Shown here: positions 10,686 to 30,623 of the stretch, piece by piece
How the letters are laid out: each line of letters begins with the position of its first letter
Numbering within the stretch: the first letter of the stretch is position 1
Assembly (NCBI RefSeq): GCF_009707865.1
Contig: NZ_WMBA01000001.1
Coordinates: 62,001-126,000, forward strand
Direction: 5' to 3'
Source of the DNA: Amycolatopsis pithecellobii
Lineage (GTDB): Bacteria; Actinomycetota; Actinomycetes; Mycobacteriales; Pseudonocardiaceae
DNA: 64,000 bases
Notes under the pieces: generated by a model
What the model was told of the DNA's origin: nothing
The model's database searches: none
Seen by the model: the letters and a program-made list of their open reading frames with translations, nothing else
Program-made: the position numbers and the translations under genes

Positions 10686-10691
10686 TCCGGA

Positions 10692-10718
10692 TCCCCGGGG
10701 CCGCCGCGGCCCCGGGGA
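10692..10718 (+). terminator. GC-rich perfect hairpin after the ALDH gene
   Basis: Perfect inverted repeat, 12-base arms TCCCCGGGGCCG and CGGCCCCGGGGA around a three-base loop, seven bases after the ALDH stop. There is no T-tract, as is usual for actinomycete terminators. It could end or attenuate transcription before the secreted beta-propeller gene. Confidence 0.6.
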
Positions 10719-10740
10719 CCGACCGCGGAGGAGAAGACCC

Positions 10741-14772: not shown

Positions 14773-14889
14773 TCGGCGATGGCCGAGGCTGCCCGGGCGC
14801 AGGACTTCCACGGTGCGGTCGCCGCCTTCCGCGAGAAGCGGCCGTTCGAGTTCGACGGCCGCTGGCAGGGGGCGGCGCCCCGTGGTGTG
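14773..14889 (+). pseudogene. C-terminal scrap of an enoyl-CoA hydratase
   Basis: In frame with the preceding hydratase relic, the sequence continues MAEAARAQDFHGAVAAFREK then RPFEFDGRW. This is the usual end of crotonase-family proteins (AQDFREG..AFxEKRxPxFxGR). No upstream crotonase core is present, so this is a fusion scrap left by deletion. It abuts the end of the opposite-strand HMG-CoA lyase gene. Confidence 0.5.
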
Positions 14890-15837: not shown

Positions 15838-17051
15838 TGGGACTCCTTCTGGTCCACGCCTTCCGGCGTCGAAGCGAGAATCTCGCGGAGTACCTCGGCG
15901 TTGTGGTAACCGGGTTCGGCGGGGCCCGCCCATCGAACGGACTTCGGAGACGCCGAGAACTTCGGGACGACGCCGGGCCCGAGCACGTTCTCACCGACTC
16001 GCTCGTCGTAATGAGGGACCAGCATCTCCCTGGCCTCAAAGTGCGGGTCGGAAACGATTTCCTTCGCTGTCCACAATGGACCGACGACGACGTCGGCATC
16101 GTCGAGCAGCCGTTGCACGGTCTCCGCGTCGTGCCCGGCCACCCATTCCGCGACGATTCCCTCGACGAGGTCCTGGTTCCGCCCGCGGTCCACGTGCGTC
16201 GCGAACCGGGGATCGTCCGCCAGTTCCGGGCGGGCCATGGCCCGGCACAGCCGTCGGAAAACCGTGTCCTGATTGGCCGCGACGATGACCCAGACTCCGT
16301 CCGCCGTTTTGAACAGATTCGACGGCGCGATGCCGTCCAGCCGCGTGCCCGAAGGCCGGCGGACCCGGCCGAGACGATCGAATTCCGGGATCATGGATTC
16401 GGTCAGCGCGAGGCAGGATTCGGCCAGCGAGACATCGACGACCTGCCCCAGGCCCGTCCTCGACCGGTGCTGCAGCGCCGCCACGGCACCGAGCGCGGCG
16501 AACAGGCCCCCGAGTGAGTCGCCCAGGGAAATCGCCATCCGTGGTGGCGCCTGTCCCGGATATCCGTTGATCGCCCGCAAGCCCCCCATCGCCTCGGCCA
16601 CGGACGCGTATCCAGGTCGCTTACTGTACGGCCCCGTCTGCCCGAACCCCGAGACCCGGACCAGGACGAGCCCCTTGTTCGCCGCCGACAATGTGGGGTA
16701 ATCCAGATTCCATTTCTCCATTGTTCCCGGCCGGAAATTCTCGACCACCACGTCGGCCGTCCGGGCGAGTTCGAGGAACGGTTTCCGGCCGTCCGGCGAA
16801 CGAAGATCCAACGTGATACAGCGTTTGTTCCGTGCGTGCACGGTCCACCAAAGGTGGTGGTCGCGATAGGCTTCCTGGCCCCATGTCCGTAACGGGTCCG
16901 GACGATCGGGCGCCTCCACCTTGATCACATCGGCGCCGTAGTCGGCCAGCAGCCGGGTCGCAAACGGACCGGCCACCACGGAGCCGAGTTCGATGACACG
17001 AATTCCGGTCAGCGGGCCGCGTTCGGTCCGCACCACGGGCTCTGAGGGCAT
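15834..17051 (-). CDS. Family III (CaiB/BaiF) CoA transferase
   Basis: 405 residues: LTGIRVIELGSVVAGPFATR, LLADYGADVIKVEAPDRPDP, NKRCITLDLRSPDGRKPFLE, and SLGDSLGGLFAALGAVAALQ with the catalytic aspartate. It moves CoA between carboxylates, for example succinyl-CoA to a branched dicarboxylate. I chose the ATG at 17051, preceded by GAAAGGAG eleven bases away; a GTG 12 bases earlier would sit on the ribosome site. It is coupled to the lyase gene, so a likely sequence is acid activation followed by retro-Claisen cleavage. Confidence 0.9.
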   Translation of the reverse strand: MPSEPVVRTERGPLTGIRVIELGSVVAGPFATRLLADYGADVIKVEAPDRPDPLRTWGQEAYRDHHLWWTVHARNKRCITLDLRSPDGRKPFLELARTADVVVENFRPGTMEKWNLDYPTLSAANKGLVLVRVSGFGQTGPYSKRPGYASVAEAMGGLRAINGYPGQAPPRMAISLGDSLGGLFAALGAVAALQHRSRTGLGQVVDVSLAESCLALTESMIPEFDRLGRVRRPSGTRLDGIAPSNLFKTADGVWVIVAANQDTVFRRLCRAMARPELADDPRFATHVDRGRNQDLVEGIVAEWVAGHDAETVQRLLDDADVVVGPLWTAKEIVSDPHFEAREMLVPHYDERVGENVLGPGVVPKFSASPKSVRWAGPAEPGYHNAEVLREILASTPEGVDQKESQ

Positions 17052-17082
17052 GGGCGCCCGCACTCCTTTCTGGGCAAGAAAC

Positions 17083-18567
17083 TCAGGTGCGCAGTACGAA
17101 CGGATCTTCCATCCGGCCCTGATCCAGGTTGACCCAGACACTCTTGGGGTGGCAATACTCGTTCAGTACCGACGGGCCGTTCTCGACTCCCATGCCGCTC
17201 TGCTTGAAGCCCGCACGCGGGGACAGCGGTGACATCGCCCGGTAGGTGTTGACCCATATCGTTCCGCACTCCAGTGATTCCGCCATCCGGTGCGCACGCC
17301 CGAGATCCGATGTCCACACTCCGGCGGCGAGACCGAATTCGGTGTCGTTCGCCTGCCGGACGACCTCTTCTTCCGTGGTGAAACGCATGGCCGCCATCAC
17401 CGGACCGAAGATTTCCTCCTGGCAAATGGTGTGCGTATTCTCCACCCCGGTGAAAATCGTCGGCTGATAGAACCACCCGTCGCCCTGACCGACGGGCCGG
17501 GCACCCCCCAGCAGGAGATCGCCGCCCTCCCGCAGGCCCAGCTCGACGTAGCGTTCGACCTTCTCGAGCTGTTCCCGGAGCGCAAGGGGCCCGAGTTCGG
17601 TGGCCGCTTCCAGCGGATCGCCGATGCGAATCGTCTTCGCGCGATCGACCACCTTCGCCAATACCTCGTCGTAGATCGAATCCTGAAGGAAAACTCGTGA
17701 ACCCGCGATACAGCTCTGCCCGCCGGCCGCGAAGATTCCCGCCACGATGCCGGTCGCCGCGTTGTCCAGGTCCGAATCCGCGAAGACGATATTGGGCGAC
17801 TTTCCACCCAGTTCCAGCGCCACGCCCGCGAGCCGGCTGCCTGCTTCCCGGGCGATATCACGGCCGGTCGCGGTACTGCCGGTAAAGGCGATCTTGGCGA
17901 CTCCCGGATTGCGGACCAGTGGTGCACCGGCCTCGGTTCCGTAACCGGTGACGATGTTGATGACACCGGGCGGAAATCCCGCCTGATCGAACAGTTGCGC
18001 CAGGGCGAGCACGGAAGCGGCGGTGTGTTCGGACGGTTTGACCACCACGGTGTTTCCTGCCGCGAGTGCGGGCGCGACCTTCGTGGTGGTCAGCAACAAC
18101 GGCGAATTCCAGGGGGTGATCGCGCCGATCACGCCGAGCGGTTCCCTGCGTGTGTAGTTGAGAATCGCCGGATCCAGCGTGTTCAGCAGTTCACCGTTGA
18201 CCTTGTCGGCCAGGCCGCCGAAATAGTGATAGTACTCAGGCAACGCTTTGACCTGACCCAGCATTTCCCGCAGCAGCTTGCCGTTGTCGAGCGACTCCTT
18301 GCGGGCCAGTTCTTCGGTGTTCTCCTCGATCAGGTCGCCGAGGCGCCTGAGCAGTTTTCCGCGTTTGGTCGGGGTGAGCCGGGGCCAAATCCCGACCGAA
18401 AAGGCGTTTTGCGCCGCGACGACAGCATCGGTGACGTCCACGTGGTTGCCCCGTGCGGCCCGGTACCACGGCCGGCCCGTGGCCGGGTTGAAGCTGTCGA
18501 AGTATTCACCCGTCGCCGGTGGACGCCAATCTCCGCCGATGAAATGGTCGTAGTGATGTTCAGTCAT
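17083..18567 (-). CDS. Aldehyde dehydrogenase
   Basis: 494-residue NAD(P)-dependent ALDH. ITPWNSPLLLTTTKVAPALA, IAFTGSTATGRDIA, ELGGKSPNIVFADSDLD and the nucleophilic cysteine in AAGGQSCIAGSR are present; TSDLGRAHRMAESLECGTIW and the C-terminal GFKQSGMGVENG are typical of betaine-/5-carboxymethyl-2-hydroxymuconate-type enzymes. Its start overlaps the stop of the upstream phytoene-dehydrogenase-like gene by eight bases. It probably finishes oxidation of an aldehyde made in this operon. Confidence 0.92.
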   Translation of the reverse strand: MTEHHYDHFIGGDWRPPATGEYFDSFNPATGRPWYRAARGNHVDVTDAVVAAQNAFSVGIWPRLTPTKRGKLLRRLGDLIEENTEELARKESLDNGKLLREMLGQVKALPEYYHYFGGLADKVNGELLNTLDPAILNYTRREPLGVIGAITPWNSPLLLTTTKVAPALAAGNTVVVKPSEHTAASVLALAQLFDQAGFPPGVINIVTGYGTEAGAPLVRNPGVAKIAFTGSTATGRDIAREAGSRLAGVALELGGKSPNIVFADSDLDNAATGIVAGIFAAGGQSCIAGSRVFLQDSIYDEVLAKVVDRAKTIRIGDPLEAATELGPLALREQLEKVERYVELGLREGGDLLLGGARPVGQGDGWFYQPTIFTGVENTHTICQEEIFGPVMAAMRFTTEEEVVRQANDTEFGLAAGVWTSDLGRAHRMAESLECGTIWVNTYRAMSPLSPRAGFKQSGMGVENGPSVLNEYCHPKSVWVNLDQGRMEDPFVLRT

Positions 18568-20302
18568 TCCGCCCGGCCTTCGAGCCAAGTTGCGAACTAC
18601 GAGTGAAGAACTTGACCACCTGGCGGAGCGCGGGCTGGCGTGCGACGCGATAGCCCAATTCGCGACCGTACCTACTGCCCATGACACGATCGGGCAAGCC
18701 CCGGTGAAGCTTGGCCGTGACCGGCGCGGACGGGACGGTTCTGGACCCGTCGAGGTCCTCCAGCACCGTTTTCGCCGCGTTGTGTCCGTTCGCGCCTATC
18801 ACACCCCCGCCGGGGTGGGTACCTGAACCGCAGAGATAGTAACCGCCGACCGGAGTACGGTAGTCGGCCAGCGCGGGAATCGGCCGGTTGCCGAAGAGCT
18901 GGTCGAAGTACATTGCTCCGTGGAAAATGTTGCCACCGGTCAGGTGATATTCGCGTTCCAGATCCAGCGGGGTGAGCACGACCCGGTCCAGAACATGCCC
19001 GCGGAGATTCGGCGCGTAACGGAACACCGTCTCCAGAACCGCGTCGGCGAACTCGTCACGTTTCTCGTCCCAGGTGGTACCGGCGAGCTCGTAGGGAATC
19101 TGCAGTACGCCAAGGGTCATCGTGTGCTTTCCGGGGGGCGCGAGAGTCGGATCGGTCGTGGACTGGATCATCGCTTCGACCACGAACTCGTCCGGCAGCT
19201 CTCCGCGCCGTTGAGCCTCCCACGCCAGCTCGAACGTCTCGACCGAGGCATTCATGATCTGCTGGGCTTCGTGCTGGGGACCGCGGCCAGGGGGGAAACC
19301 GATGTACTCGGGAAGTTCATCGATAAGCAGATGAATTCGCGCCATGGAACCCCGGTAGTCGAACTGGCTGATCGACTTCCTGACCGCGGGCTTCAGCGCT
19401 CCGCTCGGCAGCAGGTCGAGCGAGCGCAACGGATCGGCGTTCGACACGACAACGGGCGCACGGAAGATTTCGCCCGACTTCAGCCGTACCCCGGTGGTGC
19501 GACCGCGTGACACCAGCACCTCCGCCACCGGCGAACCGGTCCGGATGACCGCGCCGTGGGCCTCGGCCGACTTCGCGATCGCGCCGGTGATGCCGCCCAT
19601 CCCGCCCTTGACCAGACCCCATTGGCCGAGGTGACCCTTGAATTCGCCGACCGAATGGTGTCCGTAGACACCTGCCGTGCCCGGGGTCGACGGGCCACCC
19701 CAGATCGATACCATGCCGAAAAAGGTGAACAGTCCCTTGATGTTGCCGGACTCGAAGTAGCGATCAAGAAGGTCCTTGATCGAGGACAGCACGAACTCGT
19801 CGAACAGTCCCTCTGCGCCCGCCTCTTCGAAAGCGCGCATGACCTCGGAGCGGCTGGTCGGAGGTCGCATGAGAAACGGCGTAATAATGGATGCGAACTG
19901 CTTGACGTGAAGGCCGAAATCCAGGAACGACTTGGCGTCGGCCTCGCTGAATTTGGCCAGCTCCTTGAGGGTGCGGTCCATGTCCTTCCAGAGGAACAGG
20001 TGACTGCCGTCCGGGAAGATACCGACCTCGAGTGCCTCGTTCTGGTACAACTCGAGCCCGTATTTCTCCAGTTCCAGGTCCCGCAGGAGCTCCGGCCGGA
20101 GCAGGCCCGCGATGAACGCGCAGGAGGACCACTTGGCGCCGGGGATGAGTTCTTCGGTGACACACGCACCACCGACCACATCGCGGGCCTCGAGCACCAG
20201 GACGCGGCGGCCGGCCCGGGCGAGATAGTTCGCCGTGATCAGACCATTGTGACCGGCACCGACGACAATCGCGTCGTAGGCCTTGGTTCCGTTTTCAGAC
20301 AT
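18560..20302 (-). CDS. FAD-dependent oxidoreductase, phytoene-dehydrogenase/PYROXD2-like
   Basis: 580-residue flavoprotein. The N-terminal dinucleotide motif VVGAGHNGLITANYLARAGR (residues about 12-31) is followed by VLEARDVVGGACVTEEL; the C-terminus has YLCGSGTHPGGGVIGANGHN, the second FAD contact of the CrtI/PYROXD2 group. Length and motifs fit this group rather than true carotenoid desaturases, and no phytoene synthase is nearby. ATG start is clear because the dinucleotide motif begins right after it. The upstream barrel protein ends two bases before it, so the pair is co-translated. Substrate unknown; an amine or alcohol oxidation would feed the adjacent aldehyde dehydrogenases. Confidence 0.85.
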   Translation of the reverse strand: MSENGTKAYDAIVVGAGHNGLITANYLARAGRRVLVLEARDVVGGACVTEELIPGAKWSSCAFIAGLLRPELLRDLELEKYGLELYQNEALEVGIFPDGSHLFLWKDMDRTLKELAKFSEADAKSFLDFGLHVKQFASIITPFLMRPPTSRSEVMRAFEEAGAEGLFDEFVLSSIKDLLDRYFESGNIKGLFTFFGMVSIWGGPSTPGTAGVYGHHSVGEFKGHLGQWGLVKGGMGGITGAIAKSAEAHGAVIRTGSPVAEVLVSRGRTTGVRLKSGEIFRAPVVVSNADPLRSLDLLPSGALKPAVRKSISQFDYRGSMARIHLLIDELPEYIGFPPGRGPQHEAQQIMNASVETFELAWEAQRRGELPDEFVVEAMIQSTTDPTLAPPGKHTMTLGVLQIPYELAGTTWDEKRDEFADAVLETVFRYAPNLRGHVLDRVVLTPLDLEREYHLTGGNIFHGAMYFDQLFGNRPIPALADYRTPVGGYYLCGSGTHPGGGVIGANGHNAAKTVLEDLDGSRTVPSAPVTAKLHRGLPDRVMGSRYGRELGYRVARQPALRQVVKFFTRSSQLGSKAGRND

Positions 20303-20304
20303 GA

Positions 20305-20655
20305 TCAATGCACCTTCGGAATCGCAGTGACGAAAGACGAACGCACGGAGGCCGGATCGACCAGTTCGTCGAAGCCGGACATGACAGGACGCAGCGACGG
20401 GTCGTTGTCCCGGATCCGCACCCACTCGTCCCAGTCGCTCACCTCCAGGAACTCGACGACATCCGCGTCCAGCGCCTCGGCCGTCGCGCCGGCGACCACG
20501 TAGGCGTCGAATCGTTTGACCACACCGGTGTGCGCGAGGCAAAGCGGCTGGTCCACTTTGGCCGAGAACTCCGCGAACTGCGCCGCGGAGACACCAGAAC
20601 GGGTCCGGAACATATTCACCACGAGCGTGCGACCGCCGGTGGAATGGTCCATCAT
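20305..20655 (-). CDS. Small dimeric alpha/beta-barrel protein (RedY/HapK- or EthD-like)
   Basis: 116 residues with a ferredoxin-like alpha/beta pattern: TLVVNMFRTRSGVSAAQFAE, LCLAHTGVVKRFDAYVV, VVEFLEVSDWDEWVRIRDND and a C-terminal RSSFVTAIPKVH. This layout matches the stress-responsive/EthD/RedY group, small proteins that bind or act on oxidised intermediates, often beside oxygenases and oxidases. Three in-frame ATGs exist (20661, 20655, 20652); GAAGGA ends five bases before the one chosen. It lies two bases upstream of the flavoprotein gene. Exact family is uncertain. Confidence 0.65.
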   Translation of the reverse strand: MMDHSTGGRTLVVNMFRTRSGVSAAQFAEFSAKVDQPLCLAHTGVVKRFDAYVVAGATAEALDADVVEFLEVSDWDEWVRIRDNDPSLRPVMSGFDELVDPASVRSSFVTAIPKVH

Positions 20656-20686
20656 CGTCATCCTTCACATTTGGCGGAAAAAGGCC

Positions 20687-22123
20687 TCAGCCCTCGACGA
20701 GATTGATCATCACGTGCTTGATCTCGGTGTAGCCCTCGAGCGAATACGCCGACATGTCGTTGCCGTAGCCGGATTGCTTGAAGCCGCCGTGTGGCATCTC
20801 CGGCACGATCGGGGCGTGCTCGTTGATCCACACGGTGCCGAACTGCAGGCGCCGGGCCGCTCGCATGGCGCGGGACACGCTCGCCGTGAACACCGAGGAG
20901 GCGAGCCCGTATTCGATGTCGTTGGCCCACTCGAACGCCTGCGCCTCGTCGGCGAAAGGCGTGGTGGTGACAACCGGTCCGAACACCTCTCGTTGCACGA
21001 TCTCGGAGTGCTGCGGAGCATCGACGATCAACGACGGCTTGTACCAGAAGCCGGGGCCATCGGCGGGACCACCGACGGTGAGTTCACCGTCGCCCGCCGC
21101 CACGGCGCGTGCCACGAATTGCGCGACACGGTCGCGGTGCTGCTCCGAAATGACCGGCCCCATCTCGGTCGTGGCCAGTTTCGGATCGCCCATGGCCACG
21201 TTGCCCACGGCTTTGGCCAACTCGGCCGCGAAGTCGTCGTGAATGGAGGCCGCCACGTAAACGCGGGACGCGGCCATGCAGTCCTGCCCGGAATTGCCGT
21301 ATCCGCCTTCGACGATCTTGCGTATCGCGAGTTCGATGTCCGCGTCCTCGAAAACGAGAACCGGTGCTTTGCCACCCAGTTCGAGGGCGAGGCATTTGAG
21401 GTTTCCGCCGGCGGCCACGGCGACGCGCTTGCCCGTGGCCGAGTCACCGGTGAGTGAGGTCATCCGGATCCGGGGATGAGTCGTGATCGCCTCGCCCACC
21501 GTGTCGCCGTGCCCGGTGACCACGTTGAACACGCCCGCGGGAAACAGGTCGGCGGCGAGTTCGGCCAGCTTGAGGGCGGTGAGCGGGGTTTGTTCACTCG
21601 GTTTGAGAACGAGCGTGTTGCCGGTCACCAGTGCGGGCCCGATCTTCCATGTCGCCAGTACCAAGGGGAAATTCCACGCCGCGATACTGCCGACGACACC
21701 GAGCGGATCACGCCGGAGGAAACTGGTGTGGGTCGGCGAATACTCGCCGGCGGCCTTACCTTCGAGAACCCGGGCCGCGCCCGCGAAGAAACGGAAGTTG
21801 TCGGCCGCGAAATCGACCTCCTCGCGGGCGATGTGCAAGGGCTTGCCCACGTTGGTCGATTCCAGCGACGCGAATTCGTCGGCGTTGGCTTCGAGCCGGT
21901 CGGCAAGCGTGAGCAATGCCTTCGCGCGCTCGGCCGGCGACGTCTCTGCCCAGTCCCAGAAGGCATTTTCCGCGGCCGCCACGGCCCGGTCGACGTCCTC
22001 CTTGCCGCCAAGCGGAACACTGGCGACGACCTCACCGTCGGCCGGGTTCACAACAGATTCGGTCGCACCGGATGCCGATGGGCCGGCTTCCCCGTCGATA
22101 AACATGTTCAGGTTGGTGGCCAT
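20687..22123 (-). CDS. Aldehyde dehydrogenase, gamma-aminobutyraldehyde dehydrogenase-like
   Basis: 478 residues: NMFIDGEAGPSASGATESVV at the start, AAWNFPLVLATWKIGPAL, ELGGKAPVLVFEDADIELA and cysteine motif YGNSGQDCMAASRVYV. The GYGNSGQDC form and overall layout resemble aminobutyraldehyde/betaine-aldehyde dehydrogenases acting on amino-aldehydes. ATG is five bases after AAGGAG and overlaps the stop of the upstream kinase-aminotransferase fusion (TGATG). An aldehyde dehydrogenase directly after a kinase/phospho-lyase fusion fits the known logic of ethanolamine or hydroxylysine breakdown, in which the phospho-lyase releases an aldehyde. Confidence 0.9.
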   Translation of the reverse strand: MATNLNMFIDGEAGPSASGATESVVNPADGEVVASVPLGGKEDVDRAVAAAENAFWDWAETSPAERAKALLTLADRLEANADEFASLESTNVGKPLHIAREEVDFAADNFRFFAGAARVLEGKAAGEYSPTHTSFLRRDPLGVVGSIAAWNFPLVLATWKIGPALVTGNTLVLKPSEQTPLTALKLAELAADLFPAGVFNVVTGHGDTVGEAITTHPRIRMTSLTGDSATGKRVAVAAGGNLKCLALELGGKAPVLVFEDADIELAIRKIVEGGYGNSGQDCMAASRVYVAASIHDDFAAELAKAVGNVAMGDPKLATTEMGPVISEQHRDRVAQFVARAVAAGDGELTVGGPADGPGFWYKPSLIVDAPQHSEIVQREVFGPVVTTTPFADEAQAFEWANDIEYGLASSVFTASVSRAMRAARRLQFGTVWINEHAPIVPEMPHGGFKQSGYGNDMSAYSLEGYTEIKHVMINLVEG

Positions 22124-25041
22124 CAAAACTCCTTATTCGGACGGGCGGAAAGCTCAGGTAGTGACAAGACCTGATCGAGCGTTTCCACGTACCTGTCGAC
22201 ATGCTCCCGGCGGAAGGTCAGGGGCGGCCTGATGGTGAGCACGTTTTCGTGCACACCCGCCGGGAAAACCATCACTCCATGGTGGTTAAGGGCCAGCCCG
22301 GCGACGACTGACGCCTCGCGGCGCGCCGGCTCCTTGGTCTCGCGGTCGCGGACGAGTTCGACGCCAAGAGACAAGCCGTGCGCGCGGACTTCCCCGATCA
22401 GCGGCTGCCGGTGCTGAAGCTCGCGCAGTGCATATGCGAAATAGTCACCTACTTCCACCGCATTCTCCCGGAGACCGTCGCCGTCGACGATGTCGAGTAC
22501 CGCCTCGCCGATGGCACACGAGACAGGATTCCCGCTGAACTCGGAGAAGTATTCCGTGCTGCCGTCGAGTTCCCCGGCGATTTCCCGGGTGGTGACGACA
22601 GCGCCCAGCGGATGGCCGTTTCCCAAGGATTCTCCCATCGTGACGATGTCGGGTATCACATTCTGACTTTCGAATCCCCACCACGGTCCGAGCCGCCCGA
22701 CACCGGTTTGGACTTCGTCGGAGATACAGAGCGCACCGGCCTTCCGGGCTGCGTCGTGCACGCCGGCAAGATAGCCCTCCGGCAGAACGACGGTGCCGGC
22801 CTGGCCCATCAGCGGCTCACCGATGAAGGCCGCGGGCCGGCGGCCGTCCGCGTCGATTCGTTCGATGACGGAAGCGGCATCGCTTGCGTATTTCGAGCCC
22901 GCGCCCGGATCGCCGTAGCCGTAGGGACCGCGATAGCGGTCAGGTATTCGAACTTCGTGTGTCGCGTACCGGGCGATACTGCCACAAAACGAGCCCTCGA
23001 CGGCGACAACATGTTCGCGCCCGGTGACTTGCCGGGCCATCCGCACGGCGAGTTCGTTGGCTTCATCGCCGGAACGGACCAGAAAGACGACTTCGAGCGG
23101 CGCGGGCAAGGTCGCCACCAGTTTCTTGACATAACTGGCGACCTGTGGGGATACGAACCCGCTGCCGGTGACGAGTTTGCGCATCTGGCGAGTTGCCACG
23201 GCAGTGATCCGTGGTTCAGCATGCCCAACGGGCGCGACGGTGCTCAGCGCATCCAGGTACCCCAGCCCGTCTCCATCGAACAGCCAGACATCCCGGCCAC
23301 GCACAAAATTCATGGGGCCGGCCCGAAGCCGCACGGTGCCGAATTCCCGTAAGGTCGACGCGGTCGCCTTCCCCGGGATGTCGCGCGGCATTGGCACCGG
23401 GTCGGCAGAAAGTTGTTCCCACGCCGCTCGCTGAGACGGCCGGATCCGGCGCGGCGGTGGCCAGGTCGCGATCTGCGCCGAGGCGAGAAGTTGTACCTGG
23501 ACGCCCGGTCCGAAGCCTGGCTCGACCGGGCGCGGACCGACGACCCCGAGCCGGGCATCCAACGCCAGTTCGTCGCCGATCCGGTGGGCACACTCCAGAT
23601 TCCACCAGCAGGTGTAAAGCTCGGCGCCGTCTACTTCATGACGCAAGACCAGCGGACGGTCTTCGGCTGCGGTGTGTTCGACGATGCCGTGGATCGGGAC
23701 GCGGACTTCCGTGCCCTCATCGAGGAGCACCGTCGCGCCCAGCCTGGCCGTGGCCGGCTCCTTCGATCCGACCGCACCGGGACCGGACCACATGAGGGAT
23801 GCGTCCAGATGCGCCAGTACGCCCGGACGTCCGTCCAGCAGGCTACGGACTGCCGCGCGCAGCTCCGCCTGATCGGTCCAGTCGAGATCGTCATAGATAT
23901 CGGCCGCCGGCGTCGCGTCGAGGTGGCGCGCGGGGCCGAGGGAAGACGCGATCGCGTCGCCCGCGGTCTTCACCCCCTCCGCCATTTCCGGAGGCAATGC
24001 GCAGGCGGCCCGGAAAATGGCTTCGGCGAGGTCAGGTGGAGTCCGGGTGAGTTTCCGGATGGTGGGCCAGACATGCCGCGAACGGCTGCGCCCGTACTCC
24101 GATCCCGACTCCGCCACCCGGCGATACCAGGTCACGGCGTTCATGCACAGCCGGGTGGCGGCCAGCGGATAGATGACGGCGAGTTCCTCCGCGGTGATCG
24201 GCACGACGGCGTGGAAACCCGCCACCACCTCCGCGGCGGCGGTGAGCGGGTCGTCTTTGCGCAGCATCGCATACCCCGCCGCGATGGCGACCTCGACGGC
24301 GCGGGCGCTGTACATGGCGTCGCCGACATCGACCATTCCACTGATCCGCAGGGCGCCGTTTTCGTCCAGGTCCGCGAGGACGTTGGCATCGTTGAGGTCG
24401 TGGTGCACAACGCAATGAGGCAGATTCGGCAGCTCCGCCCGGATATCATCGAACCACGTCATGATTTCACCGACGTGCGCCGCGTCCCCCCGATCGTCGA
24501 TGAACGAGATCGAGCTGTCGATGATTTCGCGGCCACGTAACACGTCCCAGTCATGACCGGCCAGCCCGTCCGGCCGGGCCAGTCCCGACAGGCCCAGGTT
24601 CATCCGGCCCGCCATGGTGCCGAGCTCGCGTAACAGGTTTTTCGGATGATGCGGGATTTCGACCAGCGGACGTCCGCGCAACCAGCTCATCACGCGGACG
24701 ACGTAGGACGTTCCGGCATAGGACAGAGCAACCTGGTCGTCACCGGACGCGGTCCGGACGAGGCGGGGAACCGGCAGTTCCGGCACGGTACTGGCAAGAT
24801 GCCGCAACAGGGTGTTCTGCCAGGCGAGATCGACCGAAGAGGGATCGGCCCGCGTCACACGGACGAAATAGAGCTGCCCATTCTGATCGATGACCTTGAA
24901 GTTCTGGTCGATTTCGCCACCCAGCTGTTCGCCGGCGGCACAGGTGATATCGAAGTAGCGCAGCAGTGCCGCCGTCAGCATGTGCTCGGGAAGCCGCATC
25001 AAGGTTGCTTTGCCGGCGTCGTCGGCGGTGACCGAAGTCAT
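22123..25041 (-). CDS. Kinase-aminotransferase fusion; PLP lysine replaced by Glu
   Basis: 972 residues in three parts. Residues 1-350 are an aminoglycoside-phosphotransferase-like kinase with catalytic loop VVHHDLNDANVL (H214, D215, N220) and metal motif DVGDAMYS. Residues about 380-550 are a beta-rich linker (LGATVLLDEGTEVRVPIHG), the place of an M23-like domain in related fusions. Residues about 575-960 are a class III aminotransferase fold of the phospho-lyase (AGXT2L) type, with SDEVQTGVGR and RPPLTF. Where relatives read VTMGK, this gene reads VTMGESLGNGHP: the Schiff-base lysine is Glu804 (codon GAA, complement 22630-22632). VGHCHP is VGHAEP and the GAYHG segment is shortened. The kinase half looks active; the PLP half looks dead or repurposed. 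Confidence 0.88.
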   Translation of the reverse strand: MTSVTADDAGKATLMRLPEHMLTAALLRYFDITCAAGEQLGGEIDQNFKVIDQNGQLYFVRVTRADPSSVDLAWQNTLLRHLASTVPELPVPRLVRTASGDDQVALSYAGTSYVVRVMSWLRGRPLVEIPHHPKNLLRELGTMAGRMNLGLSGLARPDGLAGHDWDVLRGREIIDSSISFIDDRGDAAHVGEIMTWFDDIRAELPNLPHCVVHHDLNDANVLADLDENGALRISGMVDVGDAMYSARAVEVAIAAGYAMLRKDDPLTAAAEVVAGFHAVVPITAEELAVIYPLAATRLCMNAVTWYRRVAESGSEYGRSRSRHVWPTIRKLTRTPPDLAEAIFRAACALPPEMAEGVKTAGDAIASSLGPARHLDATPAADIYDDLDWTDQAELRAAVRSLLDGRPGVLAHLDASLMWSGPGAVGSKEPATARLGATVLLDEGTEVRVPIHGIVEHTAAEDRPLVLRHEVDGAELYTCWWNLECAHRIGDELALDARLGVVGPRPVEPGFGPGVQVQLLASAQIATWPPPRRIRPSQRAAWEQLSADPVPMPRDIPGKATASTLREFGTVRLRAGPMNFVRGRDVWLFDGDGLGYLDALSTVAPVGHAEPRITAVATRQMRKLVTGSGFVSPQVASYVKKLVATLPAPLEVVFLVRSGDEANELAVRMARQVTGREHVVAVEGSFCGSIARYATHEVRIPDRYRGPYGYGDPGAGSKYASDAASVIERIDADGRRPAAFIGEPLMGQAGTVVLPEGYLAGVHDAARKAGALCISDEVQTGVGRLGPWWGFESQNVIPDIVTMGESLGNGHPLGAVVTTREIAGELDGSTEYFSEFSGNPVSCAIGEAVLDIVDGDGLRENAVEVGDYFAYALRELQHRQPLIGEVRAHGLSLGVELVRDRETKEPARREASVVAGLALNHHGVMVFPAGVHENVLTIRPPLTFRREHVDRYVETLDQVLSLPELSARPNKEF

Positions 25042-25110
25042 CTGCGGATGCCTCTCACTGTGTAGTCCGAATCGAAGGGCGGTCTGTGCCCGCGCACAGC
25101 GGGACCGGCG

Positions 25111-26589
25111 CTATTGGCCGACATCGCTGAGCAACCGTGAATAGGCCCGCGGCCTGGCCTTACGAAGGACGAGCCCCCATGCGATGCCGCCGAGCAGGGA
25201 CGCGAACACCAGACCGACGAGTAGCGTCGCGAGCCAGCCACCGGTGCCCAGCAGGACGTCGACCTGGCTGAGCGCGAAATAGAGAATCGGTGCCAGCCCG
25301 GCCATGCCCAGCAGGGGCGCGATGACGGTGTTCCACACGCGCTTGTCGAGATTGTTGCGCCGGAAGAACACGAAGATCGCGATGCTCGCGACGAACTGCA
25401 GCAGAATGATGGCCACCGCGCCGATCCCGGTCATCCAGGAGAACAATGTGGTGTACGGGTCGAGGCGGGCCACCGCGAACACGGCGACGACCACACCCAC
25501 CATAATGGTCTGGACCACACAGGCGATATGTGGTGACTGGCGCTTGACGTGGGTCCGGCCGAGGAAAGCGGGCAGTGCACCCTGGCGGGCCAGTGAAAAC
25601 AGGTAGCGTGCGACGTTGTTGTGAAAGGTCAGCAGCGCCGCGAACATGCTGGTGATGATCAGGATGTGGATCACTCCGGTCAGCACGGCCGGGAGTACGT
25701 GGTCACTGACGGCGAACACCAGGTTCCCCGACTGTTCCTTCGCTACGGTGACCGCGTTGTCGACGCCGAGGGCGTTCACGATCAGCCAGGAGGTGATCGC
25801 GTAGAACACGCCCATGAAGATCACCGAAATATAGGTGGCGCGGGGCACGGTCCGCTTCGGGTCCCGGGCTTCTTCACCGTAGATCGCGGTGCCTTCGAAA
25901 CCGATGAAGGAAGCGTGGGCGAACATGAGAGCGACCCCGACCGCCCCGGCAAAAATTGTCGACGGCGCGAACGGCTGAAAGGAGAATTTGCCGACCGGTG
26001 TGTCGGAATTGAACAGGATCGCCACGTTCAGGACGATGATGACCGCGGTCTCCAGTGTCAGCAGCGCGCCCAGGACACGGGCACCGGAGTGAATACGATT
26101 CACGCCCAGAACAAGGCATATCAGCATGGCAAGGAATGAGTACAGCCACCACGGCACGTCGATCCCGGCCCAGTCCTTCACCAGGTCGTGTGCGTAATAG
26201 CCGATGCCGCCGTACAGCCCGAGCTGGATGGCGTTGTAGCCGAAAACCGCCAGGCTGGCGGCTCCGAGACCGGGGGAACGGCCCAATCCCAGAGTGACGT
26301 AGGCGTAGAAGGCACCGGCGTTGGTCACATGCCTGCTCATGGCGACGTACCCCACCGAAAAGACCAGCAGCACGATCGCTATCGCGAGGAACGCGCCGGC
26401 GATTCCGATGCCGTTCCCACTACCGATAATGAGCGGGTAAAGCGCGATGACCACGGTCAGCGGTGCGGCGGCGGCGACCACGAAAAACACAATGCCGGTG
26501 ACGCCGATGCTATTCTTGCTCAGGCCACTTTCCGTGGCCGGCAGACTCCGCTGCGGCTCCGCTGCTTCTGCCGGGGACGATACGCTCAT
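25111..26589 (-). CDS. APC-family amino acid/amine permease
   Basis: 492-residue integral membrane protein with about 12 hydrophobic helices. Helix 1 carries GVTGIVFFVVAAAAPLTVV and the unwound-helix signature; YVTLGLGRSPGLGAASLAVF and FEGTAIYGEEARDPKRTVPR are characteristic of the amino acid-polyamine-organocation family. It ends in a short cytoplasmic tail. It lies 69 bases upstream of the fusion gene on the same strand and probably imports the amine or amino acid handled by the kinase, phospho-lyase and aldehyde dehydrogenases. The divergent PucR gene likely controls it. Confidence 0.92.
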   Translation of the reverse strand: MSVSSPAEAAEPQRSLPATESGLSKNSIGVTGIVFFVVAAAAPLTVVIALYPLIIGSGNGIGIAGAFLAIAIVLLVFSVGYVAMSRHVTNAGAFYAYVTLGLGRSPGLGAASLAVFGYNAIQLGLYGGIGYYAHDLVKDWAGIDVPWWLYSFLAMLICLVLGVNRIHSGARVLGALLTLETAVIIVLNVAILFNSDTPVGKFSFQPFAPSTIFAGAVGVALMFAHASFIGFEGTAIYGEEARDPKRTVPRATYISVIFMGVFYAITSWLIVNALGVDNAVTVAKEQSGNLVFAVSDHVLPAVLTGVIHILIITSMFAALLTFHNNVARYLFSLARQGALPAFLGRTHVKRQSPHIACVVQTIMVGVVVAVFAVARLDPYTTLFSWMTGIGAVAIILLQFVASIAIFVFFRRNNLDKRVWNTVIAPLLGMAGLAPILYFALSQVDVLLGTGGWLATLLVGLVFASLLGGIAWGLVLRKARPRAYSRLLSDVGQ

Positions 26590-26660
26590 GTGATCACCGT
26601 CTCTTCACGGGTGGATTTCGCCTAGTCAATCAGCGCCCGCCAGGAAGGGTCAATGGAGCT

Positions 26661-26689
26661 TTGACCTGCGATGACACGCCTATTATTGT
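26661..26689 (+). promoter_or_regulatory. Sigma-70-type promoter candidate for the PucR gene
   Basis: TTGACC (26661-26666) and TATTGT (26684-26689) are separated by 17 bases in the AT-richer gap between the divergent permease and PucR genes. The expected transcription start lies only about 18 bases before the first GTG. Confidence 0.4.
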
Positions 26690-26718
26690 GCGCGTGCACA
26701 ATCCTCACAGATCGTGAG
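26686..26718. promoter_or_regulatory. Two adjacent dyads in the permease/PucR gap
   Basis: Perfect half-sites TTGTGC and GCACAA (26686-26701, four-base centre) overlap the putative -10 box. CTCAC and GTGAG (26704-26718, five-base centre) follow directly and include the first possible start codon. They are plausible operators for autoregulation or for the divergent permease operon. Confidence 0.4.
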
Positions 26719-27979
26719 CCCACGGATGAGAGATGTGGTCATGAGGACATCAGCCGACGACTGGAGTCGAGGCCGCCAAGACGAGGCGGTCCGTTCGATC
26801 GCCAAAATGCTGCTCACCGAGCGCCTCGACGAACTGGCCGTTACCGCTCAAGCACGCCTTGATCGGGAAGAGCCCGCTTATGCGCGGATGACTGAAACCG
26901 AGCCGGGGCAGAAATTGGCGGGCATGCGTCGGACACTCCGGCTGGCACTCACCCGGCTCGCGGGCGAATCGGTGCCCGCCGAGGTCGCGCAAGCCACGGC
27001 AGACGTCGGCCGGCAGCGGGCCGAACAAGGTTTTCCGCTACCCGCGGTGGTTCGTTCGTTTCAGTTGGACCTCCACACCGTGTGGGAGGCAATCATCGAG
27101 GAGGGGCGCAGCCGGGGCCTTGCCGATGGACACAATTTTCTCGATGGCCTGCTGGTGGCCTGGGAAGCGATCGACGCCAACAACATCGAAGTCGTCGACG
27201 CATACCGGCGTACGCAGGCCCATTTGGACAGTCACCGCTTCGAAATCCGCAGGCGTGCCTTCGAGCGCCTGATTCTGGAGGGAGAACACGACGACGCCGT
27301 CGTCGCCGAGGCTTCGGCCGCTCTGGGCATGGCGGCGCACGGCAGCTTCACCGTCGTCGTGGCCGCCGGGGTACCGATTCAACATCACGCCCTCACAAAA
27401 TGTCGCCACGCGCTCCAGCAGGCCAGCCTGCCCTTTCATTTCGGATACCTCGGCGACGAGTTACTGGGAATCGTGAACAGCGGACGTCAAGGCGGCCGCG
27501 CCATTCACCGCATGCTCAGGCCACTGGACGACTGGCGTTGCGGGACGGCGGAAATCACCGGACTCGGGAACACCGCCGCCGGAGTACGGCTGGCTCGCGC
27601 CGCGATGCGGAGCAGCGTCGAGTCCGGTCTCCGCCCCATCAAGTCCCATTGGGTCGGCGCCATCATGTCGGGCAACGAGGAACTCGCGGGCCTGATGGCC
27701 GGGGAGGTGCTCACGCCGTTGATGAAACTCCGTGAGTGCGAAAGCATCATCGAAACGGTGGGTAGTTTTCTCGAACTCGGATCGGTGGCGGCGGTGGCCG
27801 AGCAGACCTACCGGCATCGCAACACCGTCCGGAACCGGCTGAAGGCGGTGGAGGACGCGACCGGTCTGAGGCTCGCTGTTCCCAACGAGGCCGCATTACT
27901 GGTGATGGCCCTTGAATGGCTGAGGTCGCCCCGAGGGCGTTCGTTTTATGAAAGGTATGGCCCGGCGGCCTCGGCGTAG
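26714..27979 (+). CDS. PucR/CdaR-type transcriptional regulator
   Basis: 421 residues. The N-terminal half (to about 190) is an all-helical sensor-like region of the RsbRD/PucR-associated type; a GGDEF-like middle domain follows, and the C-terminus is the PucR helix-turn-helix: LGSVAAVAEQTYRHRNTVRN then RLKAVEDATGLRL. Family members sense small nitrogenous or catabolic ligands and activate neighbouring operons. The start is uncertain: GTG 26714, ATG 26726 or ATG 26741 are in frame and none has a strong ribosome site, so a near-leaderless message is possible. It is divergent from the permease-led operon and converges on the ROK gene with a 34-base overlap of the 3' ends. Confidence 0.85.
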   Translation: MSPRMRDVVMRTSADDWSRGRQDEAVRSIAKMLLTERLDELAVTAQARLDREEPAYARMTETEPGQKLAGMRRTLRLALTRLAGESVPAEVAQATADVGRQRAEQGFPLPAVVRSFQLDLHTVWEAIIEEGRSRGLADGHNFLDGLLVAWEAIDANNIEVVDAYRRTQAHLDSHRFEIRRRAFERLILEGEHDDAVVAEASAALGMAAHGSFTVVVAAGVPIQHHALTKCRHALQQASLPFHFGYLGDELLGIVNSGRQGGRAIHRMLRPLDDWRCGTAEITGLGNTAAGVRLARAAMRSSVESGLRPIKSHWVGAIMSGNEELAGLMAGEVLTPLMKLRECESIIETVGSFLELGSVAAVAEQTYRHRNTVRNRLKAVEDATGLRLAVPNEAALLVMALEWLRSPRGRSFYERYGPAASA

Positions 27980-29118
27980 AGCCGCTTTGAGCGCGCGGTC
28001 AGCATGTGGTCGCGCAATTGCCGGTGGGCGGCGCGGATTCCGGCTTCGGCGGCACCCCGGATCGTCGACAGGCCGAGTTCACGCGTGCTGGAAATCATGA
28101 TGGCCGGCACGATCGGCAGCGCGGACGCCAGCGCGTCGCGAACCTGGGGCAGTACCTTTTCCACGAGTGGTGCGAGACGACCGGTGAACAGGACGGTGGC
28201 GGGGTCGAGGGTCACGGCGACGACGCCGACGGCGGCGATGACGGCGGAGGTGAACGCACGCACGACATCTTCGCTCCCCGGCGGGGTGCGGGTCCAGGCG
28301 TGCTCGATCCGCTGGAGGCGTAAACCTTGCCGGCGAGCGAAGTCGAGCAATCCCCTGCTGCTCAGCAGCCGGCCGAGGGTCTCTTCGCCGACACCGGCCG
28401 GCAGGACACCAAGTTCTCCGAAGGCCGCGGTATGTCCGCGCACCAGCTGACGGTCGACGCAGGCCGCGACGGTGAAGACGCTGCTGACGCTGAACAGCAC
28501 GGCATCTCCTCGAACCCCGATGTCCTCCTCCGCGAGCGTGCCGAGTAACGCCGCGTTGGCGTCGCTGTCGAAGCTGACCGGCACTTCAAACTTGCGCTGC
28601 ATGGCATCGTGCAACGCCGTCCCGGCGAGGAAGCCGAGCGCAGCCGGGGGGCGCACAACCTCGGCCCCGGCCCGCACGGTGGCCGGGACCGCGACCACGA
28701 CCTGGCGGAGGGCGCCATCGGCGGCCGCACTCGCCCGGCGTACGTGCCGCGTCAGCCAGGCCCCGGCCTCCGCGGCGGAACTCAGCCCCGGAGTGGGGTG
28801 CGACTCCTTGACGATCGCCCGGCCCCGCAGGTCGGTGACCAGCAGACGGGTGTCCTGTACGCCGAAGCTGACGCCGGCCACGTGTCCCGCGTTCCGCGCC
28901 AGATCGAGGTAGGTCGACCGGCGACCGCGGCCGACCACGCTGTCGACGTCGCCGTCGACGACCAGGCCCGCGATGCGCAGTTCCTCCACGGCACGGGAGA
29001 CGGTGGCTTTGCTCAGCCCGGTCAACGCCATGACTTGGTTGCGGGTGATCGGGGCCCCGGCAAGAACCGCCCCGAGCACGCTGATCGTGTTGTGGTCACG
29101 GGCGGTCGGCGAACTCAT
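27946..29118 (-). CDS. ROK-family transcriptional repressor
   Basis: 390 residues: N-terminal winged helix-turn-helix (AGAPITRNQVMALTGLSKAT, VSRAVEELRIAGLV) and a C-terminal ROK domain (VAGVSFGVQDTRLLVTDLRG, FDSDANAALLG, GHTAAFGELGVLP). The cysteine-rich zinc motif of sugar kinases in the ROK family is absent, which fits a regulator binding a ligand without phosphorylating it. It is divergent from the class III aminotransferase with a 124-base gap that contains a dyad, so it very likely represses that gene and its own. Its 3' end overlaps that of the PucR gene. Confidence 0.88.
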   Translation of the reverse strand: MSSPTARDHNTISVLGAVLAGAPITRNQVMALTGLSKATVSRAVEELRIAGLVVDGDVDSVVGRGRRSTYLDLARNAGHVAGVSFGVQDTRLLVTDLRGRAIVKESHPTPGLSSAAEAGAWLTRHVRRASAAADGALRQVVVAVPATVRAGAEVVRPPAALGFLAGTALHDAMQRKFEVPVSFDSDANAALLGTLAEEDIGVRGDAVLFSVSSVFTVAACVDRQLVRGHTAAFGELGVLPAGVGEETLGRLLSSRGLLDFARRQGLRLQRIEHAWTRTPPGSEDVVRAFTSAVIAAVGVVAVTLDPATVLFTGRLAPLVEKVLPQVRDALASALPIVPAIMISSTRELGLSTIRGAAEAGIRAAHRQLRDHMLTARSKRLYAEAAGPYLS

Positions 29119-29200
29119 CGGACAACTTTAACCGAGTGTTTTGTCTCAGTTCCAGCCTGTGCGGAAAAAGGACATTGCCTTCTGGCAGCGGTCCGTATAA

Positions 29201-29217
29201 AGTTTCTGACTGAAACT
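29201..29217. promoter_or_regulatory. Dyad operator candidate between ROK and aminotransferase genes
   Basis: Perfect six-base arms AGTTTC and GAAACT flank TGACT. The first arm overlaps a -10-like TATAAA (29196-29201), and GAAACT is followed by a second GAAACT copy. The site is AT-rich compared with its surroundings, and its place upstream of the aminotransferase ATG suits a repressor site for the ROK protein. Confidence 0.5.
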
Positions 29218-29242
29218 GAAACTTACTCCCGAGGTGGTTTCG

Positions 29243-30592
29243 ATGACCTTCACCGTGAGCCGGGCACTGGCGAACTATCCGAACCGGTTCGATCCGGGAT
29301 CGCTGGCCGAACTGGCCCCGGAACTGCGATCAACGATCGAGCGGCGGATAAACGTGCTGGGACCGGGCTACTCGCTGATCTACCGGGAGCCGGTCGGGTT
29401 CGTGTCGGGCCGCGGAGCCCACCTGTTCGACGCGGAGGGCAACGACTTCCTCGACGCGTACAACAACGTGCCCTGTGTCGGCCACTGCCATCCGCATGTG
29501 GTGGAGGCGGTGGACCGGCAGATGGCGACGCTGAATACCAACACCCGGTACGTGCAGAACAACCTGGTCGAATACGCCGAACGGCTGGTGGCGACCTTCC
29601 CGGTGGAGCTGTCCCGGGTGACGTTCGCGTGCTCGGGTTCGGAGGCCAACGATCTCGCGGTCCGGGTCGCCCGGTTCTACACGGGCCACGAGGGCATCGT
29701 GGTCACTCGCTACGCCTATCACGGGATCACACGCGAGACCGCGTCTTTCTCCCCGCACCTGGGCACGGGCTCTCCGCTGGGCCCGAACGTGCGGCTGATC
29801 GAACCGCCGGATCCGCGGCTGGTGCCCGCGGGCACAACATTGGCCGAGTACATGCGGGAACAGGTGCGGGGGGCGATCGCCGACCTGGAGCGCCACGGAC
29901 ACGGGCTGGCCGCGCTGATCACCGACAACGCGCATACGAGCGACGGAATCTTCACCGATCCGGTCGGCTACCTCCAGGTCATGATCGACGAGGCACACGC
30001 CGCCGGGGGGATCTACATCGCGGACGAGGTTCAGTCCGGGTTCGCCAGGCTCGGTGAGTCGATGTGGGGCTTCCAGCGCCATGACGTGGTCCCCGACATC
30101 GTCACGATGGGCAAGCCGATGGCCAACGGGCTCCCACTGTCGGGCGTGGTGTTCCGCCCTGAGGTATCCGACGAGTTCGGCCGGAATGTTCGCTATTTCA
30201 ACACCTTCGGGGGCAGCTCCGTCCCGATCGCCGCGGCGGCCGCCGTGCTCGATGTCCTGGAGACCGAAGGAGTTGCGGAACGTGTCCTGGCCACCGGCAC
30301 GGCCTTACGTGAGGGGTTGCGCGAAATCCTTGCGGAATCCGAGCATGTCGCCGAGGTGCGCGGGGCGGGCTTGTATATCGGTGTCGAGATCGTCACCCAC
30401 CGCGACAACGGCACGCCGGACCGGTCCCGCACCGAAGCGGTGATCAACGCGCTGCGCGACCAGCGCATTCTCATCAACGGCACCGGCATCGGTGTAAACG
30501 TCCTGAAGATTCGTCCTCCGCTGGCCTTCACCTTCGACGACGTCGGCCGTTTCCTCGACACTTTCGCGCCGATCGCTCGCACGCACCTCTGA
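29243..30592 (+). CDS. Class III aminotransferase, phospho-lyase (AGXT2L)-like
   Basis: 449-residue PLP enzyme. NNVPCVGHCHPHVVEA (about 75-90), NTNTRYVQNN, CSGSEANDLAVRVARF, IADEVQSGFARLG with the PLP-pyridine aspartate D261, and VTMGKPMANGLPLSG with the Schiff-base lysine K291. This is the same subfamily as ethanolamine-phosphate and phosphohydroxylysine phospho-lyases, and all active-site residues missing from the fusion protein at 22123-25041 are present here. ATG is five bases after GAGGTGG; a GTG nine bases earlier lies inside that site and was rejected. Monocistronic and probably controlled by the divergent ROK protein. Transaminase versus phospho-lyase activity cannot be told from sequence. 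Confidence 0.9.
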   Translation: MTFTVSRALANYPNRFDPGSLAELAPELRSTIERRINVLGPGYSLIYREPVGFVSGRGAHLFDAEGNDFLDAYNNVPCVGHCHPHVVEAVDRQMATLNTNTRYVQNNLVEYAERLVATFPVELSRVTFACSGSEANDLAVRVARFYTGHEGIVVTRYAYHGITRETASFSPHLGTGSPLGPNVRLIEPPDPRLVPAGTTLAEYMREQVRGAIADLERHGHGLAALITDNAHTSDGIFTDPVGYLQVMIDEAHAAGGIYIADEVQSGFARLGESMWGFQRHDVVPDIVTMGKPMANGLPLSGVVFRPEVSDEFGRNVRYFNTFGGSSVPIAAAAAVLDVLETEGVAERVLATGTALREGLREILAESEHVAEVRGAGLYIGVEIVTHRDNGTPDRSRTEAVINALRDQRILINGTGIGVNVLKIRPPLAFTFDDVGRFLDTFAPIARTHL

Positions 30593-30623
30593 CTCCGTCG
30601 GTGCCTGAACGGTGCTGACCTAA

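What the first reader, a model, noticed from the sequence alone, without database searches (positions are those of the whole stretch)
22123..25041. Kinase-aminotransferase fusion whose PLP lysine has become glutamate
The C-terminal class III aminotransferase/phospho-lyase domain reads VTMGE where relatives read VTMGK; the codon is GAA (complement 22630-22632, residue 804). VGHCHP has changed to VGHAEP, and the GAYHG region is shortened by about 20 residues. The frame is intact over 972 residues and the kinase half keeps H214, D215 and N220, so this is not simple decay. It may be a kinase whose partner domain has become a pseudoenzyme (scaffold or ligand sensor), or one with a new PLP-free activity.
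Basis: partly seen in the sequence, partly recalled or inferred. Interest (0 to 1): 0.72.

Follow-up and report, generated by a model that had tools for sequence, protein, structure and literature searches.

The report
Kinase fused to a dead lyase
An actinomycete carries, in two copies, a kinase whose fused partner domain has lost the lysine that holds its vitamin B6 cofactor, and near it a separate intact enzyme of that kind that lacks its usual kinase, so the two incomplete halves may work as one pathway.

Summary
The 972-residue fusion has Glu804 (GAA, 22630-22632) where a class III aminotransferase/phospho-lyase needs its PLP lysine. A second copy in the same genome, 91% identical, has the same change, so a sequencing error is very unlikely. 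All 27 orthologues with a readable column keep Lys (31 examined). VGHAEP is no decay: 26 of the 31 share it. Both copies also lost the Tyr-His of AYHG, an invariant Arg and 18 residues. Only the lyase domain is accelerated (69:17 changes against a Lys-bearing relative; kinase 29:25), yet its dN/dS between the copies, 0.37, stays below 1. The same duplicated 15.7-kb block holds an intact stand-alone phospho-lyase-like enzyme. Its homologues are followed by their own kinase in 31 of 31 other loci, in neither window copy, and a genome search found no relative of that kinase but the two fusions. Best reading: reciprocal loss; the fusion supplies the kinase, the neighbour the lyase, and the dead domain survives as structure. 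Pseudoenzyme is supported; sensor or new PLP-free chemistry is not. No biochemistry was possible; a pseudo-subunit complex or slow decay remain open.

The parts
22123..25041 (-). Fusion protein, 972 aa: APH-type kinase, M23-like middle domain, class III aminotransferase-like domain
24211..24921 (-). Kinase domain (Pfam APH, residues 41-277), motifs H213-x-D215-x4-N220 and D238-x-x-D241 kept
   Evidence: dN/dS 0.17 and no rate increase
23392..23904 (-). Middle domain (residues 380-550), weakly M23-peptidase-like, without HxxxD/HxH metal motifs; the one Shinella relative read has them
   Evidence: weak matches of relatives, (the window stretch itself has no Pfam match); motif comparison by eye
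22165..23313 (-). Inactivated class III aminotransferase/phospho-lyase domain (Pfam Aminotran_3, residues 577-959)
22630..22632 (-). GAA codon, Glu804 in place of the PLP-binding lysine
22963..22983 (-). Residues 687-693: site of the 18-residue loss after the changed AYHG motif
29234..30592 (+). Stand-alone class III aminotransferase/phospho-lyase, 452 aa, Lys and AYHG intact; closest solved structures are phospho-lyases 5g4i and 6tor; its usual downstream kinase is missing
   Evidence: kinase not found
27946..29118 (-). Probable ROK-family regulator; homologues (45-67% identity) lie near the stand-alone lyase in other genomes
   Evidence: 26 of 31 loci within the flank held; the name ROK is recalled, no family search was run on it
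26714..27979 (+). PucR-type regulator, next to the fusion in 27 of 31 orthologue loci
25111..26589 (-). Amino acid permease (APC type)
20687..22126 (-). Aldehyde dehydrogenase, aminobutyraldehyde-dehydrogenase-like (669.8 bits, above the NCBIfam cut-off of NF010000)
20305..20661 (-). 118-aa protein, no Pfam or NCBIfam match; conserved in the syntenic Streptomyces iranensis cluster
18560..20308 (-). FAD oxidoreductase resembling the phytoene-desaturase group, below its curated cut-offs (start approximate)
14869..30600 (.). 15.7-kb block present twice in the genome at 94.5% nucleotide identity; second copy on contig C87

Best explanation
The fusion is a working small-molecule kinase with a dead lyase domain. 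Ancestrally it was a bifunctional enzyme: the kinase phosphorylates a hydroxy-amine (ethanolamine-like or hydroxylysine-like) and the C-terminal PLP domain removes phosphate and ammonia to give an aldehyde. In this lineage the cluster also contains a stand-alone PLP lyase of the same subgroup. That lyase arrived, or was left, without its dedicated kinase, and the fused lyase lost its PLP site. Each block therefore encodes one kinase (fusion) and one lyase (stand-alone), which together still make one kinase-lyase route: permease, fusion kinase, stand-alone lyase, aldehyde dehydrogenase. The Glu804 domain is kept as a fold or dimer module that the kinase still needs. Shown: loss of the PLP site in both copies, Lys in the readable orthologues, rate change only in the lyase domain, dN/dS below 1, intact stand-alone lyase, missing partner kinase, joint duplication. 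Inferred: substrates, kinase activity, that the two proteins act in sequence, and the structural role of the dead domain.
For: Both copies have GAA at codon 804. Lys in 27 of 27 readable orthologues, 31 examined. 54 of 222 lyase-domain columns invariant in 25 orthologues are changed in one or both copies, against 6 of 86 kinase columns (Fisher p 3.6e-4). Relative rate of the window copy against S. iranensis: lyase domain 69:17 (p 1.3e-8), kinase 29:25 (p 0.68); over all ten comparisons the lyase domain gives p between 7e-13 and 5e-4, the kinase never below 0.14. Tree stem 0.37 against 0.057 for S. iranensis in the lyase domain, 0.38 against 0.27 in the kinase. dN/dS between copies: kinase 0.17 (0.10-0.27), lyase domain 0.37 (0.26-0.57), stand-alone lyase 0.12 (0.06-0.21). 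Homologues of the stand-alone lyase (73-76%) are followed by a kinase gene 20-37 nt downstream in 31 of 31 non-window loci and in 0 of 2 window copies. At E <= 1e-3 the only matches to that kinase in this genome are the two fusion kinases, and no third full-length fusion was found. S. iranensis has the syntenic cluster with a Lys-bearing fusion and no such stand-alone lyase at E <= 1e-60, its own fusion apart. The stand-alone lyase matches phospho-lyases 5g4i (329 bits) and 6tor (305 bits) far above the next solved structure (163 bits). The duplicated block ends 8 bases past its stop codon.
Against: Nothing shows that the two proteins share a substrate: the missing kinase is only 26-29% identical to the fusion kinase. 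22 of the 31 genomes that hold the examined fusion loci also hold the stand-alone lyase at 73-76%, there with its own kinase, so the two systems may normally serve different substrates. The stand-alone lyase is 4.2 kb away, on the other strand, beside its own regulator. dN/dS of 0.37 is also compatible with slow decay. No structural evidence: both models have low confidence in much of the lyase domain, and the Lys-bearing control is no better.
Confidence: 0.55

Rival explanations
1. Pseudo-subunit: the Glu804 domain binds the stand-alone lyase as an inactive partner, as LCB1 does to LCB2 in serine palmitoyltransferase, and thereby tethers or controls the active lyase beside the kinase.
For: Intact paralogue in the same duplicated block; class III enzymes are dimers with shared active sites (recalled); LCB1 lacks the PLP lysine but works with LCB2 (passages of PMC3794620); lyase domain still under constraint.
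Against: The two lyase proteins are only about 37% identical; the window copy also lost the conserved Thr of NTFGG (E834), which in class III enzymes reaches the partner's cofactor (recalled), while the other copy keeps it. No complex could be modelled with these tools.
Confidence: 0.17
2. Slow decay: the fusion is becoming a pseudogene and its lyase domain went first.
For: Relaxed rate only in the lyase domain; some former invariant positions differ between the copies.
Against: No stop or frameshift in either copy over 972 codons and no gap between them; kinase dN/dS 0.17 and no rate increase; the lyase-domain dN/dS interval 0.26-0.57 excludes 1.
Confidence: 0.18
3. The domain became a ligand sensor or gained a PLP-free activity.
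For: The domain is kept in frame under some constraint; the window copy has three acidic residues, D659, E804 and E834, where Ser, Lys and Thr stood.
Against: Of 14 changed formerly invariant positions, 6 differ between the two copies, so no new pocket appears conserved; two of the three acidic residues are in one copy only.
Confidence: 0.06
4. Sequencing or assembly error at codon 804.
For: The held assembly is a draft of 144 contigs with an estimated contamination of 3.21%.
Against: The 91%-identical copy on another contig has the same GAA with synonymous differences around it, and the AYHG losses are shared.
Confidence: 0.01

Closest known systems
Bacterial kinase-M23-class III aminotransferase fusions (NCBIfam NF004799 PRK06148, NF004800 PRK06149)
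   Same: Homology over nearly the whole length (699 and 614 bits) and the same domain order
   Different: Below the curated cut-offs (1128, 973), as are the two Lys-bearing Streptomyces orthologues tested; PLP lysine and M23 metal motifs absent
Ethanolamine-phosphate phospho-lyase (human, PDB 6tor) and Arthrobacter phospholyase A1RDF1 (PDB 5g4i)
   Same: Best solved-structure relatives of the dead domain and of the stand-alone lyase
   Different: The dead domain lacks the Schiff-base Lys, the Tyr-His of AYHG and the Arg of NTNxR; the stand-alone enzyme keeps them
Serine palmitoyltransferase LCB1 (SPTLC1)
   Same: PLP-fold protein without the PLP lysine beside an active paralogue (passages of PMC3794620)
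   Different: Another PLP subfamily and not fused to a kinase (recalled); complex formation not shown here
Two-gene module in Streptomyces and Pseudonocardiaceae: stand-alone lyase followed by an APH-type kinase
   Same: The window's stand-alone lyase is a 73-76% identical relative
   Different: The window copies lack the kinase gene present in 31 of 31 other loci

Membership tests
Kinase-M23-class III aminotransferase fusion (PRK06148) | APH kinase at the N-terminus and class III aminotransferase fold at the C-terminus | tested here: met
   Pfam APH 41-277 and Aminotran_3 577-959
Kinase-M23-class III aminotransferase fusion (PRK06148) | Score above the curated NCBIfam cut-off | tested here: not met
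   698.9 bits against 1128; two Lys-bearing orthologues also fail, 872 and 892 bits
Kinase-M23-class III aminotransferase fusion (PRK06148) | M23 domain with HxxxD and HxH metal motifs | tested here: not met
   Absent by eye in the window and the 9 relatives aligned, present in the one Shinella protein read; that these motifs bind the metal is recalled
Class III PLP-dependent phospho-lyase (ETNPPL-like) | Schiff-base lysine | tested here: not met
   Glu804 in both copies
Class III PLP-dependent phospho-lyase (ETNPPL-like) | AYHG and NTNxR motifs | tested here: not met
   SFCG and VTGSG in the window copy; the stand-alone protein has both motifs
Class III PLP-dependent phospho-lyase (ETNPPL-like) | Phosphate and ammonia release from a phospho-amine | not testable with these tools
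   Needs an enzyme assay
Pseudoenzyme domain | Homologue of an enzyme lacking its essential catalytic residues | tested here: met
Pseudoenzyme domain | Retained under selection rather than decaying | tested here: inconclusive
   dN/dS 0.37, interval 0.26-0.57, below 1 but about three times that of the stand-alone lyase
APH-type small-molecule kinase | HxDxxxxN and a following Asp | tested here: met
   activity not testable here

The most novel reading that the evidence does not exclude
Two complete kinase-lyase systems collapsed into one by reciprocal loss, and the dead lyase domain of the fusion now docks the stand-alone lyase from the other system, so that a pseudo-subunit rebuilds in trans a bifunctional enzyme that was once a single chain.
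Probability: 0.2. Interest if true: 0.75.

Novelty: new variant of a known kind. Interest (0 to 1): 0.55.

Why it matters
Here a fused enzyme has lost one activity while a neighbour lacks the complementary one, and both halves, close Lys-bearing relatives and an internal duplicate are at hand. That allows a direct test of whether a dead PLP domain is kept for structure, for docking, or only for lack of time. It also suggests stepwise loss along one chain: the one Rhizobiales relative read has the motifs of all three domains, the actinobacterial relatives aligned lack the M23 metal motifs, and this lineage lost the lyase site as well.

Tried and rejected
Sequencing error: made very unlikely by the second copy. 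VGHAEP as decay: rejected, shared by Lys-bearing orthologues. Compensating lysine: the C-terminal domain has Lys only at 622, 639, 640, 717, 767, 903 and 970, none close to 804 in sequence; not excluded in space because no reliable model was obtained. Structure route: the window model has low confidence at 555-657 and 803-857; the Lys-bearing S. iranensis orthologue folded with the same 15 sequences is equally low there (558-675, 835-882; mean pLDDT 68.6 against 72.8), so the result says nothing about degeneration. Simple displacement of the fused lyase by the stand-alone one: 22 of the 31 genomes behind the examined loci also have the stand-alone lyase, so its presence alone does not explain the loss; the missing partner kinase is the informative part. 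Kinase against solved structures: no match at E <= 0.01. Strain mixture as the source of the second copy: two 5-kb samples of C87, about 6 kb outside the block on either side, have no near-identical second place apart from a 345-base piece on C114 at 99%; the second sample also has eight weaker matches of 67-79%. Literature: nine searches listed no paper whose title or abstract start concerns this fusion with a lost lysine; only the held open-access library was searched, and the lists were cut (25 of 41, 15 of 40, 10 of 145 papers shown).

Rows dropped: of 36 loci, five distant matches (L050-L054) were not examined; of the 31 examined, L038 is cut at its contig end before the column, L046 does not read in one frame, and L048 and L049 have kinase and lyase in different frames, so four gave no lysine column. 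The 25-orthologue counts leave out L033, L038 and L046-L049; L047 enters only the count with 29 sequences, which also holds L010, L011 and the window's own stand-alone lyase.

Full report
Observation. The complement strand 22123-25041 encodes 972 residues without a stop. Pfam places an APH kinase at 41-277 and a class III aminotransferase at 577-959. Residue 804 is Glu, codon GAA at 22630-22632, in the motif VTMGE. The kinase motifs HHD at 213-215, N220 and DVGD 238-241 are intact. The AYHG region reads SFCG and is 18 residues shorter than in the same-genus homologue.

A second copy. The held genome of the window (7.9 Mb, 144 contigs) contains a second fusion on contig C87, 91% identical (translation). 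It has the same Glu804 with a GAA codon, reads SSRG in place of AYHG, and has the same shortening. The two copies lie in a 15.7-kb block, window 14869-30600, that is 94.5% identical in DNA and collinear, with no gaps in the 11 genes compared. Two 5-kb samples of C87, about 6 kb outside the block on either side, have no near-identical second place in the genome apart from a 345-base piece on C114; the second sample has eight further matches of 67-79%. This argues for a duplication of the block rather than two mixed strains.

Orthologues. One scan of the species-genome collection with an alignment of the two copies and the same-genus homologue gave 36 loci, 25 of them Streptomyces, at 28-60% identity. 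I examined 31. All 27 with a readable column have Lys; none has Glu. Streptomyces iranensis (L042) has the same cluster, PucR, permease, fusion, aldehyde dehydrogenase, 118-aa protein, FAD oxidoreductase, with a Lys-bearing fusion. A pattern for the Glu form matched only the window genome among 394 genomes of its class.

Which part changed. Of 222 lyase-domain columns invariant in 25 orthologues, 54 are changed in one or both window copies, against 6 of 86 in the kinase and 2 of 23 in the middle domain. Of 73 positions invariant in 29 diverse Lys-type sequences, 14 are changed in one or both copies, including Lys804, Tyr685, His686, Arg628, Asn600, Asn601 and Asn624. Relative-rate counts against S. 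iranensis with A. alkalitolerans as outgroup are 69:17 for the lyase domain, 29:25 for the kinase and 13:11 for the middle domain; the ten comparisons run give p from 7e-13 to 5e-4 for the lyase domain, 0.14 or more for the kinase and 0.08 or more for the middle domain. In trees the stem of the window pair is 0.37 in the lyase domain against 0.057 for S. iranensis, and 0.38 against 0.27 in the kinase. Support for that sister grouping is only 81/69 and 82/83, and 7 of 15 inner branches of the kinase tree are open.

Selection. Between the two copies dN/dS is 0.17 for the kinase, 0.37 for the middle domain and 0.37 for the lyase domain, with bootstrap intervals 0.10-0.27, 0.19-0.70 and 0.26-0.57. 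The ten other genes of the block range from 0.08 to 0.25; the stand-alone lyase has 0.12. The lyase domain is therefore relaxed but not free. Six of the 14 changed invariant positions differ between the copies, which speaks for drift in the former active site. I note that this last comparison is biased towards sites already known to be free.

The neighbour. At 29234-30592, on the other strand but inside the same duplicated block, lies a stand-alone class III enzyme with VTMGK and AYHG intact. Its best solved relatives are the phospho-lyases 5g4i and 6tor at 329 and 305 bits, the next being 163 bits; the fused domain also ranks these two first. Homologues at 73-76% identity were found in 31 non-window places. 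I read the flanks of all 31: every one has a kinase gene 20-37 nucleotides downstream on the same strand, and 26 have the regulator gene within the DNA held. Neither window copy has that kinase. A search of the whole window genome with one such kinase finds, at E <= 1e-3, only the two fusion kinases at 26-27% identity; in the window and on C87 there is no other match better than E 0.3.

Interpretation. As far as the searches show, the genome has one kind of kinase and one kind of active lyase of this system, each from a different ancestral pair and each without its original partner. The simplest account is reciprocal loss with functional pairing: permease, kinase of the fusion, stand-alone lyase, aldehyde dehydrogenase. 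That phospho-lyases of this kind act on phosphoethanolamine and 5-phosphohydroxylysine is established knowledge (Veiga-da-Cunha 2012, of which I saw only the entry in the reference list of PMC8154272; the paper itself is not held). The substrate here is unknown; the wider cluster, with a CoA-transferase, a lyase of the HMG-CoA type and a second aldehyde dehydrogenase, may point to a larger amine. Against the model: 22 of the 31 genomes behind the examined fusion loci also hold the stand-alone lyase, there with its own kinase, so the two systems may have had different substrates.

The middle domain. It resembles peptidase family M23 only weakly (4 of 10 sequences, best E 0.001, and not the window sequence itself; 5kqb at E 0.085). 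The one Shinella fusion that I read has HLGLDL and HLHLQ, while the window protein and the nine actinobacterial relatives aligned lack these motifs. Loss of function along this chain therefore may have happened in two steps.

Structure. The AlphaFold model of the window protein is confident for most of the kinase and middle domain but not for much of the lyase domain. The Lys-bearing control, folded with the same sequences, is equally poor there. No conclusion is drawn from it. Foldseek still ranks phospho-lyases first.

Precedents. LCB1 of serine palmitoyltransferase lacks the PLP lysine and works with an active paralogue (passages of PMC3794620). Yeast Alt2 lost alanine transaminase activity but still forms a Schiff base (passages of PMC5960717). 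I found no paper on a kinase-lyase fusion with a lost lysine in the listings of the nine searches, which cover open-access papers only and were partly cut.

Verdict. A real, lineage-specific pseudoenzyme domain in an otherwise normal-looking kinase, with a plausible trans-acting replacement in the same block. New variant of a known kind, moderate interest, testable with ordinary enzymology.

Noticed in passing
window 14869-30600 and contig C87 (L014-L017): A 15.7-kb catabolic block of at least 11 genes is duplicated at 94.5% identity; one end lies 8 bases past the stop of the stand-alone lyase. The cause of the duplication was not determined.
   Followed up: partly
window 30915-31193: An open stretch just beyond the block end resembles the C-terminal part of allophanate hydrolase (motif recalled, no search run) with stops upstream in that frame; probably a remnant.
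   Followed up: no
window 26714-27979 and 27946-29118: The PucR-type and probable ROK regulator genes converge and overlap by 34 bases.
   Followed up: no
fusion residues 380-550; L080 4905-7955: The M23-like middle domain lacks the metal motifs in the actinobacterial members aligned but has them in the one Shinella fusion read, so that site was probably lost before the lyase site.
   Followed up: partly
L046 9001-11962: The Streptomyces tuirus orthologue does not read in one frame in this assembly; its kinase, middle and lyase pieces lie in different frames.
   Followed up: no
L048 and L049, around 9001-11270: Two mycobacterial contigs have a kinase frame directly followed by a lyase 52-54% identical to the window's stand-alone lyase, in kinase-lyase order, the reverse of the 31 Streptomyces and Pseudonocardiaceae-type loci.
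   Followed up: partly
window 20305-20661: A 118-aa protein without any Pfam or NCBIfam match is conserved at 68% in the syntenic S. iranensis cluster and differs by only 3 residues between the copies (dN/dS 0.12).
   Followed up: no
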